Below are positions 1 to 5,346 of a stretch of 20,488 nucleotides of DNA, piece after piece. The stretch is from a virus. The translations under genes were made by a program, and so were the position numbers. Under the pieces are notes generated by a model. The model worked only from the letters and a program-made list of their open reading frames with translations. It did not search any database and was not told where the DNA came from. The stretch's first letter is position 1. Each line of letters opens with the position of its first letter. The DNA is taken from positions 1-20,488 of IMG/VR virus record IMGVR_UViG_3300025645_000580. One strand, 5' to 3'.

Positions 1-309
1 GCCACATTTGAGTCGCTCCCACCAGTTTATGGGAGGGTCAGAAGTGACCCACAGCAATGTCACGGGGATTGCACCCTCCCACCAGTTAGGAAAGGACATA
101 ATTTGTACGCTCATCAAGCCGCTACTGTTTCTTCCTTTCCTGTTAATTTATGGGAGCCACCCCCTCTGCGCAGAAATACCAACTGTACCCCGCTCCCACC
201 AGATTTGGGCCACTTCTAAGACTCCGCAAGGACAAAGACAGCTCGCCCAATATAACCAGAGGCCATCGACAACGCGCAGCAATGCCACAACGTAGTCGCC
301 TCGCAACTA
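1..309. repeat. Interspersed short-repeat array, candidate guide-RNA (TIGR-like or bridge-RNA-like) locus
   Basis: This stretch has no convincing gene and holds several exact short repeats. Repeat A, CTCCCACCAG, is at 16-25, 76-85 and 193-202, with weaker copies near 135-144, 250-259 and 300-309. Repeat B, CAGCAATGYCAC, is at 52-63 and 277-288, with weaker copies near 112, 171 and 224. Other pairs are TTTATGGGAG (26-35, 147-156), TAGGAAAG (87-94, 308-315) and GCCACA-N4-AGTCGC (1-16, 284-299). Laid out in rows of about 30 bases, A and B alternate, giving a double period of 57-60 bases with the last units shorter. The intervening segments differ from each other. About 53% of the first 300 bases are G/C, unlike the neighbouring genes. 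CTCCCA (16-21) can pair with TGGGAG (30-35), and GGGTCA (35-40) with TGACCC (45-50). The array may continue left of the window. The exact repeats are seen; the regular alternation and the guide-RNA reading are inference. Confidence 0.55.
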
Positions 310-322
310 GGAAAGAAGTAAA

Positions 323-1030
323 ATGGACACAAGATATGAAGACCCGACTATCGCAATGATTTATCGAACATGGCGCAACCGTCAAAATATGGTTCGCGCT
401 GAAGGTAAATTAGTATTGCAAATTAAAGCTATCTGTAGAGGTTTTGCAGATGGTGAGATTAAAGAAGCAAACAAATTATTTACTGCTTTGAAAAAAGGAG
501 AGGGTTCACTTGAACTCATGGCTGCAACAAAACCATTGTTTGATGCCAGAGAGCCTTTGTTAAAAAGTAGAGCAAGCTTTGAAAAGTGGTTATCTGATTT
601 GGCAAAAGAATTACCTGTTGCAACTTTTGTGGACAAAGTAAAAGGCTTTGGTCACTTGGGCTTGGCAGGTATTGTTGGAGAAGTTGGCGACTTTATGGCT
701 TACGAGAAAGAACTGGACGGTATTTACAAACGTGCAGGACTTGCCGTGATTGATGGAGAACGTCAACGTAAGCACAGCAATGCTGAAATGGCATTGGTTC
801 ACGGCTATAACCCTTCAAGGCATGCGGTCTTCTGGACGATTGGCGACAGTCTTCTCAAGGCTCAAGGCAAAGAAGAGAACGCAGGGCCATACAGAATGGT
901 ATACGATAAGCGTAAGATCATGGAGCGTGAGAGAGTTGAAACAGACGGTCATGCGCATAACAGAGCTTTACGCTATATGACAAAGCGTTTGGTTAAAGAT
1001 TTATACAAAGAATGGAAGGAGGTAGCATAA
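323..1030 (+). CDS. Stand-alone IS110 C-terminal-like / Nop-like helix-hairpin-helix protein (candidate TasA-like)
   Basis: This 235-residue protein resembles the C-terminal (Transposase_20) half of IS110-family transposases. A helical, coiled-coil-like N-terminus (residues 11-45) is followed by a helix-hairpin-helix segment at 107-123 (GFGHLGLAGIVGEVGD), then GLAVIDGERQRK (139-150). The C-terminal half is basic and helical, ending in HAHNRALRYMTKRLVKDL (210-227). The RuvC-like DEDD domain that normally precedes this part in IS110 is absent, and I see no Ser where IS110 has its catalytic serine (around 143-150). This argues against an active transposase. In published TIGR-Tas systems the Tas proteins carry a Nop domain related to box C/D snoRNPs and IS110, and stand-alone forms occur in phages; the upstream repeats fit that reading. 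The start is set by AGGAAAGAAG just upstream (309-318). The family likeness is fairly clear; the Tas-like role is inference. Confidence 0.6.
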   Translation: MDTRYEDPTIAMIYRTWRNRQNMVRAEGKLVLQIKAICRGFADGEIKEANKLFTALKKGEGSLELMAATKPLFDAREPLLKSRASFEKWLSDLAKELPVATFVDKVKGFGHLGLAGIVGEVGDFMAYEKELDGIYKRAGLAVIDGERQRKHSNAEMALVHGYNPSRHAVFWTIGDSLLKAQGKEENAGPYRMVYDKRKIMERERVETDGHAHNRALRYMTKRLVKDLYKEWKEVA

Positions 1031-1407
1031 TGTCTATTGCAGATGATACGATGTGTATGCATTACACACTTGAGCGGTTGGGCGGTATTAAGACCGAAAC
1101 TGACTTACGAGAGTTTATGGAAGAGATCAGGCATAACATTGGCGTGAACGATGAATGGCGTGAAGCTAACCCAGATGGCGATATGCCCGATGGTTCGTTT
1201 GTTGATGATCCTGATGATTTTGATATGAACTCTGCGCTTGAGAGGGTTAAGCGTAACTATATTGAGAGAGCTTTAACTAAAACCAAAACGTTATCTGAGG
1301 CTGCTGAATTGCTTGGCTTCTCTAATTACCAGACTTTGCAGAACTGGATTGACCGATTGGAGAAGGCTCAATACGAGGCTGAAGACAAAAGAATGGGAGT
1401 GAGTTGA
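1030..1407 (+). CDS. Fis-type helix-turn-helix (HTH_8-like) DNA-binding protein
   Basis: This 125-residue protein has an acidic middle (about residues 45-66, rich in Asp) and a C-terminal helix-turn-helix of the Fis/HTH_8 kind at about 70-111: an ERVKRNYIERAL helix, then LSEAAELLGFSNYQTLQNWI. The recognisable core is AAELLGFSNYQTLQNWI. This fold usually binds DNA as a dimer, as in Fis or the C-termini of NtrC-type activators; no AAA+ or receiver domain is present. I chose the ATG at 1030 over an in-frame ATG at 1012 because AAGGAGGT (1016-1023) is a near-perfect ribosome site for it. It overlaps the upstream stop by one base (TAATG), so the two genes are translationally coupled. It may regulate the array/operon or tether the upstream protein to DNA; that part is speculation. 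Confidence 0.7.
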   Translation: MSIADDTMCMHYTLERLGGIKTETDLREFMEEIRHNIGVNDEWREANPDGDMPDGSFVDDPDDFDMNSALERVKRNYIERALTKTKTLSEAAELLGFSNYQTLQNWIDRLEKAQYEAEDKRMGVS

Positions 1408-1619
1408 TGATTAAATACTTTACGTTTATGGTGCTGACTTATTTCGTGCAAGGCGAACAAGTTACGCATAACATACTATTTAAAAGCTATGACGATTGTA
1501 GTCACAGCAAAGAAGCCATGTACTTTATGATGGAGCATCAACATGACGATGTGCATATTTATTGTAAGGGCACAGCGGTTGCTTCTAATGAACTTGTTAA
1601 GCCGAAAGCGAGGCCATGA
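1407..1619 (+). CDS. Small exported or membrane-anchored protein with two cysteines
   Basis: This 70-residue protein opens with a hydrophobic stretch (MIKYFTFMVLTYFVQG) that could be a short signal peptide or membrane anchor. The hydrophilic remainder has cysteines at 31 and 53 and His-rich EHQHDDVHIYCK (43-54). I do not recognise a family. Its layout, a hydrophobic N-terminus then SYxxC and a second Cys about 20 residues later, resembles the small protein encoded at 19734-19910. The ATG at 1407 overlaps the previous stop by one base (TGATG) and follows GGGAG with 7-base spacing; a TTG one codon earlier is less likely. It belongs to the coupled operon that starts at 323. Confidence 0.6.
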   Translation: MIKYFTFMVLTYFVQGEQVTHNILFKSYDDCSHSKEAMYFMMEHQHDDVHIYCKGTAVASNELVKPKARP

Positions 1620-1774
1620 AAGATAGAACTAACAAAAAGTGGACTGAGGCAGAGAAGGAGTGGATGGGTTATAAACGTAAATTAGCAAACTTTAAAAAAG
1701 AAAGCGTTAGTTTATCCAAACCTCCTTGGGAAAAAGAAGCCGAACAAATTGAAGAAGATAAAGAAAAAAATTAG
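1616..1774 (+). CDS. Small charged protein of unknown function, last gene of the operon
   Basis: This is a 52-residue protein rich in Lys and Glu, reading MKDRTNKKWTEAEKEWMGYK at its start and ending EQIEEDKEKN. It has no recognisable domain; most of it is probably helical and highly charged. Its start overlaps the preceding stop as ATGA, which supports translational coupling. Its stop codon touches the stem of a strong terminator, so it closes the operon. Too little is visible to assign a role. Confidence 0.5.
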   Translation: MKDRTNKKWTEAEKEWMGYKRKLANFKKESVSLSKPPWEKEAEQIEEDKEKN

Positions 1775-1798
1775 CGGGAATAAATCCCGCTTTTTTTT
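1774..1798 (+). terminator. Rho-independent terminator, probably bidirectional
   Basis: GCGGGA (1774-1779) pairs perfectly with TCCCGC (1785-1790) across a 5-base loop and is followed by eight T (1791-1798). On the other strand the same stem is followed after three bases by seven T (A-run 1764-1770). It sits between the rightward operon and the leftward replication operon and could end both. Confidence 0.85.
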
Positions 1799-2309: not shown

Positions 2310-4493
2310 CTAGTCAAGTATATCTTCCTCTTGATTTAATTGACCCCCAACAACACCAAGCCATTTACGAGGGCCACTTCTGTTTCTTTTAAACTGGTCA
2401 ATACGCCCATCGTTTTGCAACGTAGTCACAGCCTTTTTAACTGTGCTTTCTCCTACATTTCTAAGGTTGCCTGCGTTTATGTCATCATTTGGCGCTGTTC
2501 TGATAGCATCAAAAATACCATCATGCATACCGCCCTTAGTAACGGGAATACCGCGATCCTCTCGCATTCTAATAAAATTAAAGACATATTCTATTCTTTC
2601 CCGAACGGCTTGAGACATAGCAAAATTTCGTATGTCTATACTCTTATCTTCTAACAGACCAGTATCTGGATTACGGATAAAGTGTCTTATTTCCCGATTT
2701 GCAGGGCCGTTTGCTTTTACCACCGCACCGTCAAAAACAGCATTTCTTGTGTATGGCACTTGTAAATCTTTACAACGTGACTTAGCCGTAGGCTCATCCA
2801 CTTGCCATACAGAGAACGCACATCTTACACCGTCCACAATCGCAGAAGTACCTCTGATTTTATTACGAGCTTTCTCTGGCGAGTCGATAAAGTCATTGTC
2901 GCTTACCTTCGCCATATGGTGGTTTACGATCACCGTTGCTCCTGTTTCCGTTGCGATCTGAGCCAACAAACCCATAAATGCTGCGCCTGCCGCAGGATCA
3001 GCGTTTACATCTGCGTGAACAAATGATGCCATTGGATCAATAATAACCAATGCGAGGTCTTCAATCTCCAACATTTCTTCGTAAATCTTTTCAAATTCTG
3101 GTGATGTTGCGTATGTATTGTCCACTTTCATCATAATTGGAAACACACCGCCTTCGTTCGGCAGCGGCACAATGATACAATCATGGTCATAACCCGAACG
3201 TTTGTTCAGGGGATCTAGCCTGCTGATCCGTCTGTGGATCTCATCTTTGTCATCTTCTGCTGATAAAATTATTGATGTGCCATGATTAGCAACCAAACCA
3301 CCGAAAGAGCTTTGCATACCATCGCCCGATGCTACCTTCATCGCTAGATCAAGCGTCATCATACCTTTACCGCTATCCCCTGCGGCGGCAAACACCACTG
3401 GCACCCCAAGCGGTATTGTATCTCCGATTAAGAACTTCTGCTCTGGAGCCGACCCAACAAACTGCTGAGTAATAAGCAAGTTCTGGTTTTTAAGAGATAA
3501 TACCTTTTTGACCTTATGCGTAGGTGCATTGAGAAAGTTTGAAATATCAAACCCCTCTTCAATCGCATCTGCGGCATCCCACTTTTTAGGCTTACCCTTT
3601 GGCGGCACGAGCATGGTGATTGATTTTGCACCTGCATTCTGAGCCAGTTCTTGAACTATCCTAGCTAGTTTTTTACCTGCATCGTCATTATCAGGCCATA
3701 TGATTAGCTCTCTGCCTTGCAATGGAGAGAAATCAAACTTGTCTTTTGTATTACGGGATAACATCCCTGCACCACCGATAGTACAGGTAGCTGTATATCC
3801 TTGTTTTGTTAGCTCATCTGCGCACTTCTCACCTTCCACCCATATTACGCGATCTGATTGCGCAATGTCAGGGAGGTTATAAAGCGGTCTGGTTTCAGGT
3901 AAACGTGGAAACTGGCGGAACTCTTTCTTCGTATTCCCGTCCGTATCCCGAACAATTTCACCCGTTGGATCTCTTTCGATATATCTTCGTACCGTTACAA
4001 GGACTTCTCCATCAGTTGATAGGTAGAAATACTCGCCATCGTGTGGCGTGTTAGTATCAATGACCCGCTTTTGTCTAACTTGTTCGGGTTGTTCTTCCTG
4101 GGGCTGCTGTAACTTGTTCGGGTTAATTGGGTTAATCGGCGCTTCTGCCTGGGGACGATCTAAGAACGTAGAGAAATGTTCGGCTACATCTGTGATTTTC
4201 CACCTGTAAGCCTCCATTAGAATCTTGGATATGCCCCCGATCCCATCACCACTATTGAAATCCATGCCGCGCATAAAGTTTGGGCTTGATGGATCAATGT
4301 TTATTTTAAGAGATTGCCCTGCCTCACCTGACAATGAGCCAAGATAAAACTCATTCCGAACAACTCTTCCGTTTGGGTAAGCATTCTTTAGTGCTTCGAT
4401 CTGTACATATGACGGAACTTTTTCCGTAATCTCAGCGACTATATCTTTTTGATTGCTACCATATATTGTATTGCCAACTACTCTTAATGACAT
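2310..4493 (-). CDS. Toprim / RecA-like (AAA_25) primase-helicase
   Basis: This 727-residue protein probably primes and/or unwinds DNA at the phage replication fork. Residues 1-110 resemble the CHC2-type primase lead (GMDFNSGDGIGGISKIL, 76-92) but without zinc-binding cysteines. A Pro/Gln-rich linker spans about 113-142. A Toprim domain covers about 213-320, with WVEGEK (218-223) and WPDNDDAG (266-273) giving the metal-binding acidic residues. A RepA/AAA_25-type RecA fold covers about 345-565. Its P-loop AAGDSGKGM (370-378) lacks the usual Ser/Thr after GK; the Walker B is LVIIDP (482-487), followed by the NHH sensor (524-526). The last ~95 residues look like a winged helix. GAGGA upstream of the ATG supports the start. 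Primase-helicase is the best reading from domain order; which activities it retains cannot be told. Confidence 0.85.
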   Translation of the reverse strand: MSLRVVGNTIYGSNQKDIVAEITEKVPSYVQIEALKNAYPNGRVVRNEFYLGSLSGEAGQSLKINIDPSSPNFMRGMDFNSGDGIGGISKILMEAYRWKITDVAEHFSTFLDRPQAEAPINPINPNKLQQPQEEQPEQVRQKRVIDTNTPHDGEYFYLSTDGEVLVTVRRYIERDPTGEIVRDTDGNTKKEFRQFPRLPETRPLYNLPDIAQSDRVIWVEGEKCADELTKQGYTATCTIGGAGMLSRNTKDKFDFSPLQGRELIIWPDNDDAGKKLARIVQELAQNAGAKSITMLVPPKGKPKKWDAADAIEEGFDISNFLNAPTHKVKKVLSLKNQNLLITQQFVGSAPEQKFLIGDTIPLGVPVVFAAAGDSGKGMMTLDLAMKVASGDGMQSSFGGLVANHGTSIILSAEDDKDEIHRRISRLDPLNKRSGYDHDCIIVPLPNEGGVFPIMMKVDNTYATSPEFEKIYEEMLEIEDLALVIIDPMASFVHADVNADPAAGAAFMGLLAQIATETGATVIVNHHMAKVSDNDFIDSPEKARNKIRGTSAIVDGVRCAFSVWQVDEPTAKSRCKDLQVPYTRNAVFDGAVVKANGPANREIRHFIRNPDTGLLEDKSIDIRNFAMSQAVRERIEYVFNFIRMREDRGIPVTKGGMHDGIFDAIRTAPNDDINAGNLRNVGESTVKKAVTTLQNDGRIDQFKRNRSGPRKWLGVVGGQLNQEEDILD
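4076..4124 (-). repeat. 15-bp exact direct repeat inside the primase-helicase linker
   Basis: TAACTTGTTCGGGTT occurs at 4076-4090 and 4110-4124, 34 bases apart, so the two copies are read in different frames (QPEQV and NPNKL). Each contains the ACCCGAAC word on the minus strand. It lies in the low-constraint Pro/Gln linker of the primase-helicase. Confidence 0.6.
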
Positions 4494-4525: not shown

Positions 4526-4556
4526 AGGGGTTAGCATTTACACGGTGCTGACCCCT
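4526..4556 (-). other. Strong intercistronic hairpin between nuclease and primase-helicase genes
   Basis: AGGGGTTAGCA (4526-4536) pairs with TGCTGACCCCT (4546-4556) over 11 bp with one G-U pair and a 9-base loop. It overlaps the nuclease stop codon and lies ~30 bases before the primase-helicase start. No T-run follows on the minus strand, so a simple intrinsic terminator is unlikely; it could stabilise or process mRNA, or block read-through ribosomes. Confidence 0.5.
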
Positions 4557-5346
4557 AATTATATTCATCTTTCCAACAAGTCTCCCTAAACTCACAAAAC
4601 TTGCAAAGATAAAAATCTTTGCTCTGAGCTATGCGAGGTAGAATGTCACCTGCTTTTGATGCAGTCAAGATATTTACTGCCTTATCACTTGCTGCCTGTG
4701 CCAACTCCTTATCAAAAGGAACTAATTCGTAGTATATTTCAGACGTATTTTTATTCACGACTGTAAACAATGCAGGGCATTCTGTTAGATCCATGTAAGC
4801 CTGATACAGAGCGATCTGCGTTGCATATGTTGGGTTGGCTTTTGCTACACCCATACGTTGGAATGATTTCCATTTGCTGTCTTTCGCTGACTTGTTTTCC
4901 CACAAAGATGGGTAGCCCATATCAACAGGACCATCACAGATAACCCCATCTATATGTCCTTTGATTTCGTCATCAGCAATTGAAAACCCGAACTGCTCTC
5001 CCATCTTGTCTTCTGTCCTAAGATCAAAGCCTGCATCCTTTATCCACTTGGCTGCGTAATCTTCGATCCCGTGACCAAACTCAAAGATGCGTAATGTCTG
5101 TGCGCTAAAGCCAGAGTTCTCATCTTGAGGGTAATTTAGGTAACGATACTGAATTTTACGGCTGCACTCATCGCCAATACTTGACGCTCCCAGGTACTTC
5201 CGCCGCTTTTTCTTCTCATTAAGCCGAACAATTCCTCGGTCTACAGCCTTTGCTATAGACTCTATTACAGGATCAGAACGGGATACTTGTAGGGGGCCAA
5301 GTGCCCGTTGACTTAAAGTAATTTTCTTCGAGCTTCCCAATTTCAA
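4555..5346 (-). CDS. Cas4/RecB-like PD-(D/E)XK nuclease with a cysteine cluster
   Basis: The protein is up to 263 residues with the motifs of the Cas4/AddB-type nuclease family. H92 lies in EFGHGIEDYAAKWI, D133 in IKGHIDGVI, E150-N-K152 in LWENKS, and QIALYQAYM at 177-185 is the usual motif IV. C61 plus C248, C251 and C257 (CKFCEFRETC) form the four-cysteine set that holds a 4Fe-4S cluster in Cas4 and AddB. It probably processes DNA ends for recombination or replication. No cas1/cas2 or CRISPR is nearby, so a CRISPR-adaptation role is unlikely. The first codon is uncertain: TTG at 5346 gives this span, but TTG at 5340 has better GGAG spacing. It overlaps the upstream gene by about 70 bases, unusually long for this operon. 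Confidence 0.85.
   Translation of the reverse strand: MKLGSSKKITLSQRALGPLQVSRSDPVIESIAKAVDRGIVRLNEKKKRRKYLGASSIGDECSRKIQYRYLNYPQDENSGFSAQTLRIFEFGHGIEDYAAKWIKDAGFDLRTEDKMGEQFGFSIADDEIKGHIDGVICDGPVDMGYPSLWENKSAKDSKWKSFQRMGVAKANPTYATQIALYQAYMDLTECPALFTVVNKNTSEIYYELVPFDKELAQAASDKAVNILTASKAGDILPRIAQSKDFYLCKFCEFRETCWKDEYN

What the first reader, a model, noticed from the sequence alone, without database searches (positions are those of the whole stretch)
323..1030. Orphan IS110-C-terminal/Nop-like protein without nuclease domain, next to the array
The protein keeps the helix-hairpin-helix part of IS110 transposases but lacks the RuvC-like DEDD domain, and no serine stands where the IS110 catalytic serine would be. 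IS110 enzymes use a bridge RNA encoded next to the gene, and Tas proteins share a Nop-type fold with them. A nuclease-less version placed just after interspersed repeats in a phage suggests an RNA-guided DNA-binding (rather than cutting) system, for example to repress host or competitor genes, or a domesticated IS110 remnant.
Basis: partly seen in the sequence, partly recalled or inferred. Interest (0 to 1): 0.85.

Follow-up and report, generated by a model that had tools for sequence, protein, structure and literature searches.

The report
Nuclease-less RNA-guided phage DNA-binding system
This marine phage carries a small protein without a cutting domain, next to a row of guide-RNA hairpins, and both match the recently described TIGR-TasA system, which is thought to bind chosen DNA sites without cutting them; what it binds in nature is still unknown.

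Summary
The ORF at 323-1030 is real. It is a TasA protein, the solo-Nop, nuclease-less effector of TIGR-Tas systems, not an orphan IS110 remnant. Its AlphaFold2 model (pLDDT 94.9) aligns best to TasR (Z 17.6) and TasH (Z about 16), then to IS621 (13.7), and distantly to Prp31 and Nop5 (about 8). Its best NCBIfam model is TIGR_Tas_endo (82 bits, below the 100-bit cut-off); IS110 scores only 18.5.

The 'array' at 1-305 is the 3' part of a stem-loop TIGR array. Units are palindromic stem - CA - 9-nt spacer A - 13-nt loop repeat CRCAGNRATGYCA - 9-nt spacer B - C - stem. The loop repeat is a covarying 3-bp mini-hairpin, mostly with a GNRA tetraloop. All 47 related phage loci with at least 1 kb upstream have such arrays. 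More distant relatives mostly keep the plan with 30- or 36-nt loops.

Natural targets are unresolved. One spacer pair matches a rival lineage's terminase small-subunit gene (17 of 18, the mismatch G.U-compatible), and gap-2 matches are modestly enriched over mispaired controls. This is suggestive only.

The parts
1..21 (+). 3' remainder of TIGR stem-loop unit 1 (box C GCCA 1-4, spacer B CATTTGAGT 5-13, 3' stem GCTCCCA); the 5' half lies beyond the window end
   Evidence: sequence; complete unit TGGGAGC-CGCTATAGGTACGCATCAATGCCACATTTGAGTC-GCTCCCA in sister contigs L002/L003
30..81 (+). unit 2: 9-bp stem, 34-nt loop; spacer A GAAGTGACC, loop repeat CACAGCAATGTCA, spacer B CGGGGATTG
   Evidence: (fold z -2.8)
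88..141 (+). unit 3: 9-bp stem, 36-nt atypical loop without a clear loop repeat
   Evidence: fold z -3.5
151..198 (+). unit 4: 7-bp stem, 34-nt loop; spacer A CCCCCTCTG, loop repeat CGCAGAAATACCA, spacer B ACTGTACCC
205..250 (+). unit 5: 6-bp stem, 34-nt loop; spacer A CTTCTAAGA, loop repeat C-TCC-GCAA-GGA-CA (fully compensated mini-hairpin), spacer B AAGACAGCT
259..302 (+). unit 6 (terminal unit; GAGGC/GCCTC stem also last in most relatives inspected): spacer A TCGACAACG, loop repeat CGCAGCAATGCCA, spacer B CAACGTAGT
323..1030 (+). tasA: solo-Nop, nuclease-less TIGR-associated protein, 235 aa
1030..1407 (+). downstream gene with Fis-like HTH, overlapping tasA stop; present only in the closest lineage, so probably not a core part
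1404..1774 (+). two small ORFs (1404-1619, 1616-1774) of the same run of genes, unknown function
1773..1798 (+). intrinsic terminator-like hairpin plus T run ending the array-tasA-HTH operon
   Evidence: same site scored in sister L003 4451-4469

Best explanation
A TIGR-TasA system of the stem-loop-array type in a marine tailed phage, probably of an alphaproteobacterial host. The array just upstream of tasA is transcribed with it and cut into single hairpin units. Each unit carries two 9-nt spacers, flanked by box C (GYCA) and box D (CRC) at the outer stem and again at a central mini-hairpin. A TasA dimer binds one unit through its Nop domains, and the two spacers pair with opposite strands of one dsDNA site (spacer A sense, 0-2 bp gap, reverse complement of spacer B). 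Lacking a nuclease, the complex holds or bends the DNA instead of cutting it, blocking transcription, replication or packaging, most plausibly of competing phages. Shown here: protein family and fold, absence of a nuclease, array anatomy, covariation, conservation of the pairing array+tasA. Inferred from experiments on other Tas systems (PMC12045711): processing, dimer, RNA binding, tandem-spacer targeting. Speculative: the role and the targets.
For: Sequence: phmmer hit to TasR 9mty E 1.1e-10; profile hits TasR 2.8e-14 and TasH 0.0027; NCBIfam TIGR_Tas_endo 5.9e-23 versus IS110 18.5 bits; 37 of 37 family members hit TIGR_Tas_endo. Fold: AF2 pLDDT 94.9; TasR Z 17.6, rmsd 2.2 over 191 residues; TasH Z about 16; IS621 13.7; Prp31/Nop5 about 8. 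Array: fixed 34-nt loops; 230 distinct loops with two variable 9-nt blocks between invariant motifs. Selected by loop repeat alone, 89% of 317 sites have a flush stem at the expected offset, median 0 at other offsets. Selected by stem alone, the central pairs covary (GC, AT, GT, and TCC/GGA, GCG/CGC, GCC/GGT variants), pairing 95% versus 81% in shuffles at the outer pair; R:Y association Fisher p 3e-20. All 47 loci with at least 1 kb upstream have at least 2 strict units. Most distant relatives keep the plan with 30- or 36-nt loops. [quoted passage not shown]
Against: No RNA data: transcription, processing and binding are not shown for this phage. The NCBIfam score is under its 100-bit curated cut-off (that model is named for endonucleases). 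No target of the window's own units was found, and evidence for targets of relatives is weak. Unit 3 of the window is atypical.
Confidence: 0.9

Rival explanations
1. The phage uses TasA for competition: tigRNAs direct TasA to packaging or other essential sites of related rival phages, blocking them without cutting. (This is a narrower claim about the role, compatible with the best explanation.)
For: In 2.4 Mb of related phage DNA, 4 spacer-pair clusters match with at most 1 mismatch in the predicted geometry at gap 2; 20 mispaired controls average 0.65 (max 3), and the predicted geometry has 0 or 1 at gaps 0-1 and 3-9. The clearest: CTACATTCA/TTATGTCTT (owner L036) fits the terS gene of another lineage; all 31 IMG/VR hits of the slightly relaxed pattern lie in terS, and none of the owner lineage's fetched contigs holds that terS. 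Mismatches sit at spacer 5' edges, where TasR tolerates them.
Against: Few events; other gaps and geometries also show 1-2 hits, and at 2 mismatches there is no excess. The 31 terS hits are homologous, so one event. None matches exactly.
Confidence: 0.3
2. TasA regulates host genes or aids phage integration or replication by RNA-guided DNA bending.
For: Faure et al. suggest bending aid and regulation as options. The window's operon carries a Fis-like HTH gene next to tasA.
Against: The HTH gene is confined to the closest lineage; no own-genome target of the window's units; spacers turn over between close relatives, unlike fixed regulatory guides.
Confidence: 0.25
3. Decayed or domesticated IS110 transposase that lost its RuvC domain.
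For: Shared Nop-type fold with IS621 (Z 13.7); weak IS110 model hit (18.5 bits); PHROG label 'transposase'.
Against: TasR and TasH are closer by sequence and fold; the nuclease-less form is the rule in a large conserved family; multi-unit arrays instead of one bridge RNA.
Confidence: 0.03

Closest known systems
TIGR-TasA with stem-loop arrays (Faure et al. 2025, PMC12045711; Peromyscus gut contig)
   Same: Solo-Nop effector without nuclease; tandem hairpin units with variable palindromic stems, box C/D motifs and two short spacers; many such systems lie in phages
   Different: Here the loop length is strictly fixed (34 nt) and the central linker is a conserved 13-nt covarying mini-hairpin, like the 'intermediate' arrays that paper mentions; marine lineage, relatives in Alphaproteobacteria
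TaTasR (9MTY) and TasH (21KL, 9VZX etc.)
   Same: Nop domain fold (Z 17.6 and about 16), DGHAHNRA-type C-terminal motif shared with TasR
   Different: No RuvC or HNH domain; dual-repeat array replaced by stem-loop units
IS110 family / IS621 recombinase
   Same: Nop-type RNA-binding fold and dual-guide logic
   Different: No DEDD RuvC domain, no single bridge RNA, lower similarity
Nop5 / Prp31 box C/D RNP proteins
   Same: Distant fold similarity (Z about 8) and box C/D-flanked guide logic
   Different: No sequence similarity found, no K-turn/L7Ae seen, DNA rather than RNA target expected

Membership tests
TIGR-Tas, TasA type | Nop-domain protein of the Tas branch | tested here: met
   (NCBIfam score 82 is below the 100-bit curated cut-off for the endonuclease model; no tree was built)
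TIGR-Tas, TasA type | no HNH or RuvC nuclease domain | tested here: met
   235 aa; whole model covered by the coiled coil + Nop part of TasR/TasH; Pfam finds no nuclease
[quoted passage not shown]
TIGR-Tas | array processed to Tas-bound tigRNAs | not testable with these tools
   no RNA data; shown for other TasA systems in PMC12045711
TIGR-Tas | tandem-spacer recognition of opposite DNA strands | tested here: inconclusive
   weak excess of matches in the predicted geometry at gap 2 only
IS110 transposase | N-terminal DEDD RuvC-like domain | tested here: not met
IS110 transposase | NCBIfam IS110 equivalog score | tested here: not met
   18.5 bits versus cut-off 140
IS110 transposase | catalytic serine of the C-terminal Tnp domain | not tested
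   no residue-level mapping onto IS621 was made
Nop5/Prp31 box C/D proteins | Nop fold with L7Ae/15.5K K-turn partner and fibrillarin or spliceosome context | tested here: inconclusive
   fold match only, Z about 8; partners not searched

The most novel reading that the evidence does not exclude
A lineage of TIGR-TasA systems in marine phages that acts as a non-cutting, RNA-guided weapon between related phages, with natural targets that include the rival's terminase small-subunit gene, recognised by two 9-nt spacers across a 2-bp gap.
Probability: 0.2. Interest if true: 0.8.

Novelty: new member of a known kind. Interest (0 to 1): 0.5.

Why it matters
What TasA systems target, and how a nuclease-less guide system helps a phage, is an open question of the 2025 discovery paper. 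This set gives about 230 aligned guide units from some 50 closely related marine phages, rigid 9-nt spacer boundaries, an RNA motif defined by covariation, a link to Alphaproteobacteria with culturable members (Rhizobium, Shinella, Methylobacterium, isolated phage RHph_X2_25), and one concrete candidate target (terS). That makes the target question testable.

Tried and rejected
Dual-repeat TIGR array: no alternating edge repeats; the unit is a hairpin. AlphaFold2 with 20 close relatives gave pLDDT 57.8 and was discarded; the deeper alignment solved it. Rfam: nothing credible. Pfam: no family. Plasmids: no relative. First genome-contig scan found none; the second, with the C-terminal alignment, found five. 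Target searches: exact patterns for a recurrent unit, the window's terminal unit and another recurrent unit gave only hits that look like chance or common codon strings; one Rhizobium unit gave none in 248 Rhizobiaceae genomes. Exact hits counted can be explained by loci that had been fetched with those same patterns, so these loci were removed and the test repeated. Allowing G.U wobble makes the background too high to use. The Fis-like HTH gene as a partner of TasA was rejected as a general feature: only the closest lineage has it.

Full report
Observation. ORF 323-1030 (+) encodes 235 aa. The 320 bases before it hold tandem hairpins: five complete units at 30-81, 88-141, 151-198, 205-250 and 259-302, plus the 3' end of another at 1-21. 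The best non-overlapping chain has 36 bp, against 12.1 +/- 5.3 in 500 shuffles (max 26), and four of five loops are exactly 34 nt. The record is an IMG/VR virus contig of 20,488 bases; its left end cuts the array. The sister contig L003, identical to the window over 4,027 nt, shows 12 units, -681 to -20 from the gene.

Protein. The nearest solved relative is TasR, PDB 9mty (phmmer 1.1e-10; profile 2.8e-14), then TasH (0.0027). NCBIfam gives TIGR_Tas_endo 82 bits (5.9e-23, below the 100-bit cut-off) and IS110 18.5 bits (cut-off 140). Pfam gives nothing. PHROG 4285 'transposase' covers all 37 family members scanned; that label looks like a misnomer. An AlphaFold2 model from 37 relatives has pLDDT 94.9 and pTM 0.87. 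It aligns to TasR at Z 17.6 (rmsd 2.2 over 191 residues), to TasH at about 16, to IS621/ISCro4 at about 14, and to Prp31/Nop5 at about 8; Foldseek gives the same order. TasR residues 106-297 and IS621 residues 121-314 account for the whole model, so the nuclease domain is absent. This is TasA in the sense of Faure et al. 2025 (PMC12045711).

Array. In 56 related marine phage loci (72-100% identity) the region upstream of tasA, where the contig reaches it, carries the same kind of unit. From 230 distinct loops: stem of variable, palindromic sequence; CA; nine variable bases (spacer A); CRCAGNRATGYCA; nine variable bases (spacer B); C; stem. The loop repeat folds as a 3-bp mini-hairpin, mostly with a GNRA tetraloop; R and Y covary (Fisher p 3e-20). 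Two selections guard against circularity. Sites chosen by loop repeat alone have a flush stem at the expected offset in 89% of 317 cases, median 0 at other offsets. Units chosen by stem alone (180 loops) show the mini-hairpin with compensated variants (GCA/TGC, ACA/TGT, TCC/GGA, GCG/CGC, GCC/GGT), and slid pairings do not show it, apart from one (12,22) that pairs no better than its shuffles. All 47 loci with at least 1 kb upstream have at least two strict units. Shuffles keep columns but not relatedness, so the covariation p-value is optimistic; the counted loops, however, are all distinct.

Distribution. More distant relatives (31-57% identity over the alignment) lie in Rhizobium, Shinella, Methylobacterium and an alphaproteobacterial MAG, in Rhizobium phage RHph_X2_25, and in 26 further viral contigs. 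Most have the same plan with a 30-nt loop (9-nt loop repeat of the kind CGAAACCCA or TGACACCCA), two (L336, L337) with a 36-nt loop (CGCCTGAAAAGGCCA). A few show only one or two units or none in the stretch held.

Mechanism. Faure et al. [quoted passage not shown] By homology the window's system should do the same and, without a nuclease, bind and probably bend DNA. From the reported cut geometry I derived the target form as spacer A + 0-2 bp + reverse complement of spacer B; this derivation is mine.

Targets. In 2.4 Mb of related phage DNA, arrays masked and pattern-fetched loci excluded, four spacer-pair clusters match with at most one mismatch at gap 2, none at gaps 0 and 1. Twenty mispaired controls at gap 2 average 0.65 (max 3); three other geometries give 0-2 per gap. 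Two of the four look best. CTACATTCA/TTATGTCTT (owner L036) fits a terminase small-subunit gene (PHROG 51) of another lineage; its single mismatch would be a G.U pair. CTCAAGTTA/TTCTGCCTC (owners L028, L029 and L090) fits a site next to a terminator-like sequence. Owner-lineage contigs held here contain no such terS. The 31 IMG/VR hits of the terS pattern are all terS, which counts as one event. Searches with other units found only chance-like hits. No self-target of the window's own units was found with fewer than 4 mismatches. I treat the competition hypothesis as open.

Comparison and verdict. Membership in TIGR-Tas (TasA, stem-loop array) is met on the sequence, fold, no-nuclease and array criteria; RNA processing and DNA targeting were not testable or inconclusive. 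IS110 membership fails on the RuvC domain and the family score. Novelty: a new member of a known kind. The fixed loop lengths and the covarying central mini-hairpin sharpen what Faure et al. mention as stem arrays with a conserved intervening sequence; I could not see their supplementary figures, so I do not claim this as new.

Noticed in passing
L003 1772-2308 (beyond the window's left end): A 179-aa gene directly upstream of the array, same strand, conserved (38-100% identity) in nearly all marine relatives whose contigs reach it and weakly in L325/L326; no Pfam or PHROG match. Possibly a TasA-associated gene.
   Followed up: partly
window 1030-1407: Fis-like HTH gene overlapping the tasA stop codon, only in the closest lineage.
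   Followed up: partly
arrays of L002-L056: Spacers turn over between close relatives, sometimes one half at a time (same spacer A with a different spacer B), and a few identical spacer pairs occur in divergent lineages, suggesting exchange of units.
   Followed up: partly
L336 and L337 arrays: 36-nt loops with loop repeat CGCCTGAAAAGGCCA, a third loop-repeat type besides 13 and 9 nt.
   Followed up: no
L318-L322, L058: Array units run up to and into the 5' extension of the tasA open frame, so guide units may overlap coding sequence.
   Followed up: no
window 2310-4493 (-): Primase/helicase most similar (about 36%) to a protein of Wolbachia phage WO and to Rhizobium phages, fitting an alphaproteobacterial host.
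   Followed up: no
window 4555-5343 (-): Cas4-domain exonuclease-like protein (PHROG 1990, 1.5e-70), in the same replication/recombination gene block as helicase and Sak4-like genes.
   Followed up: no
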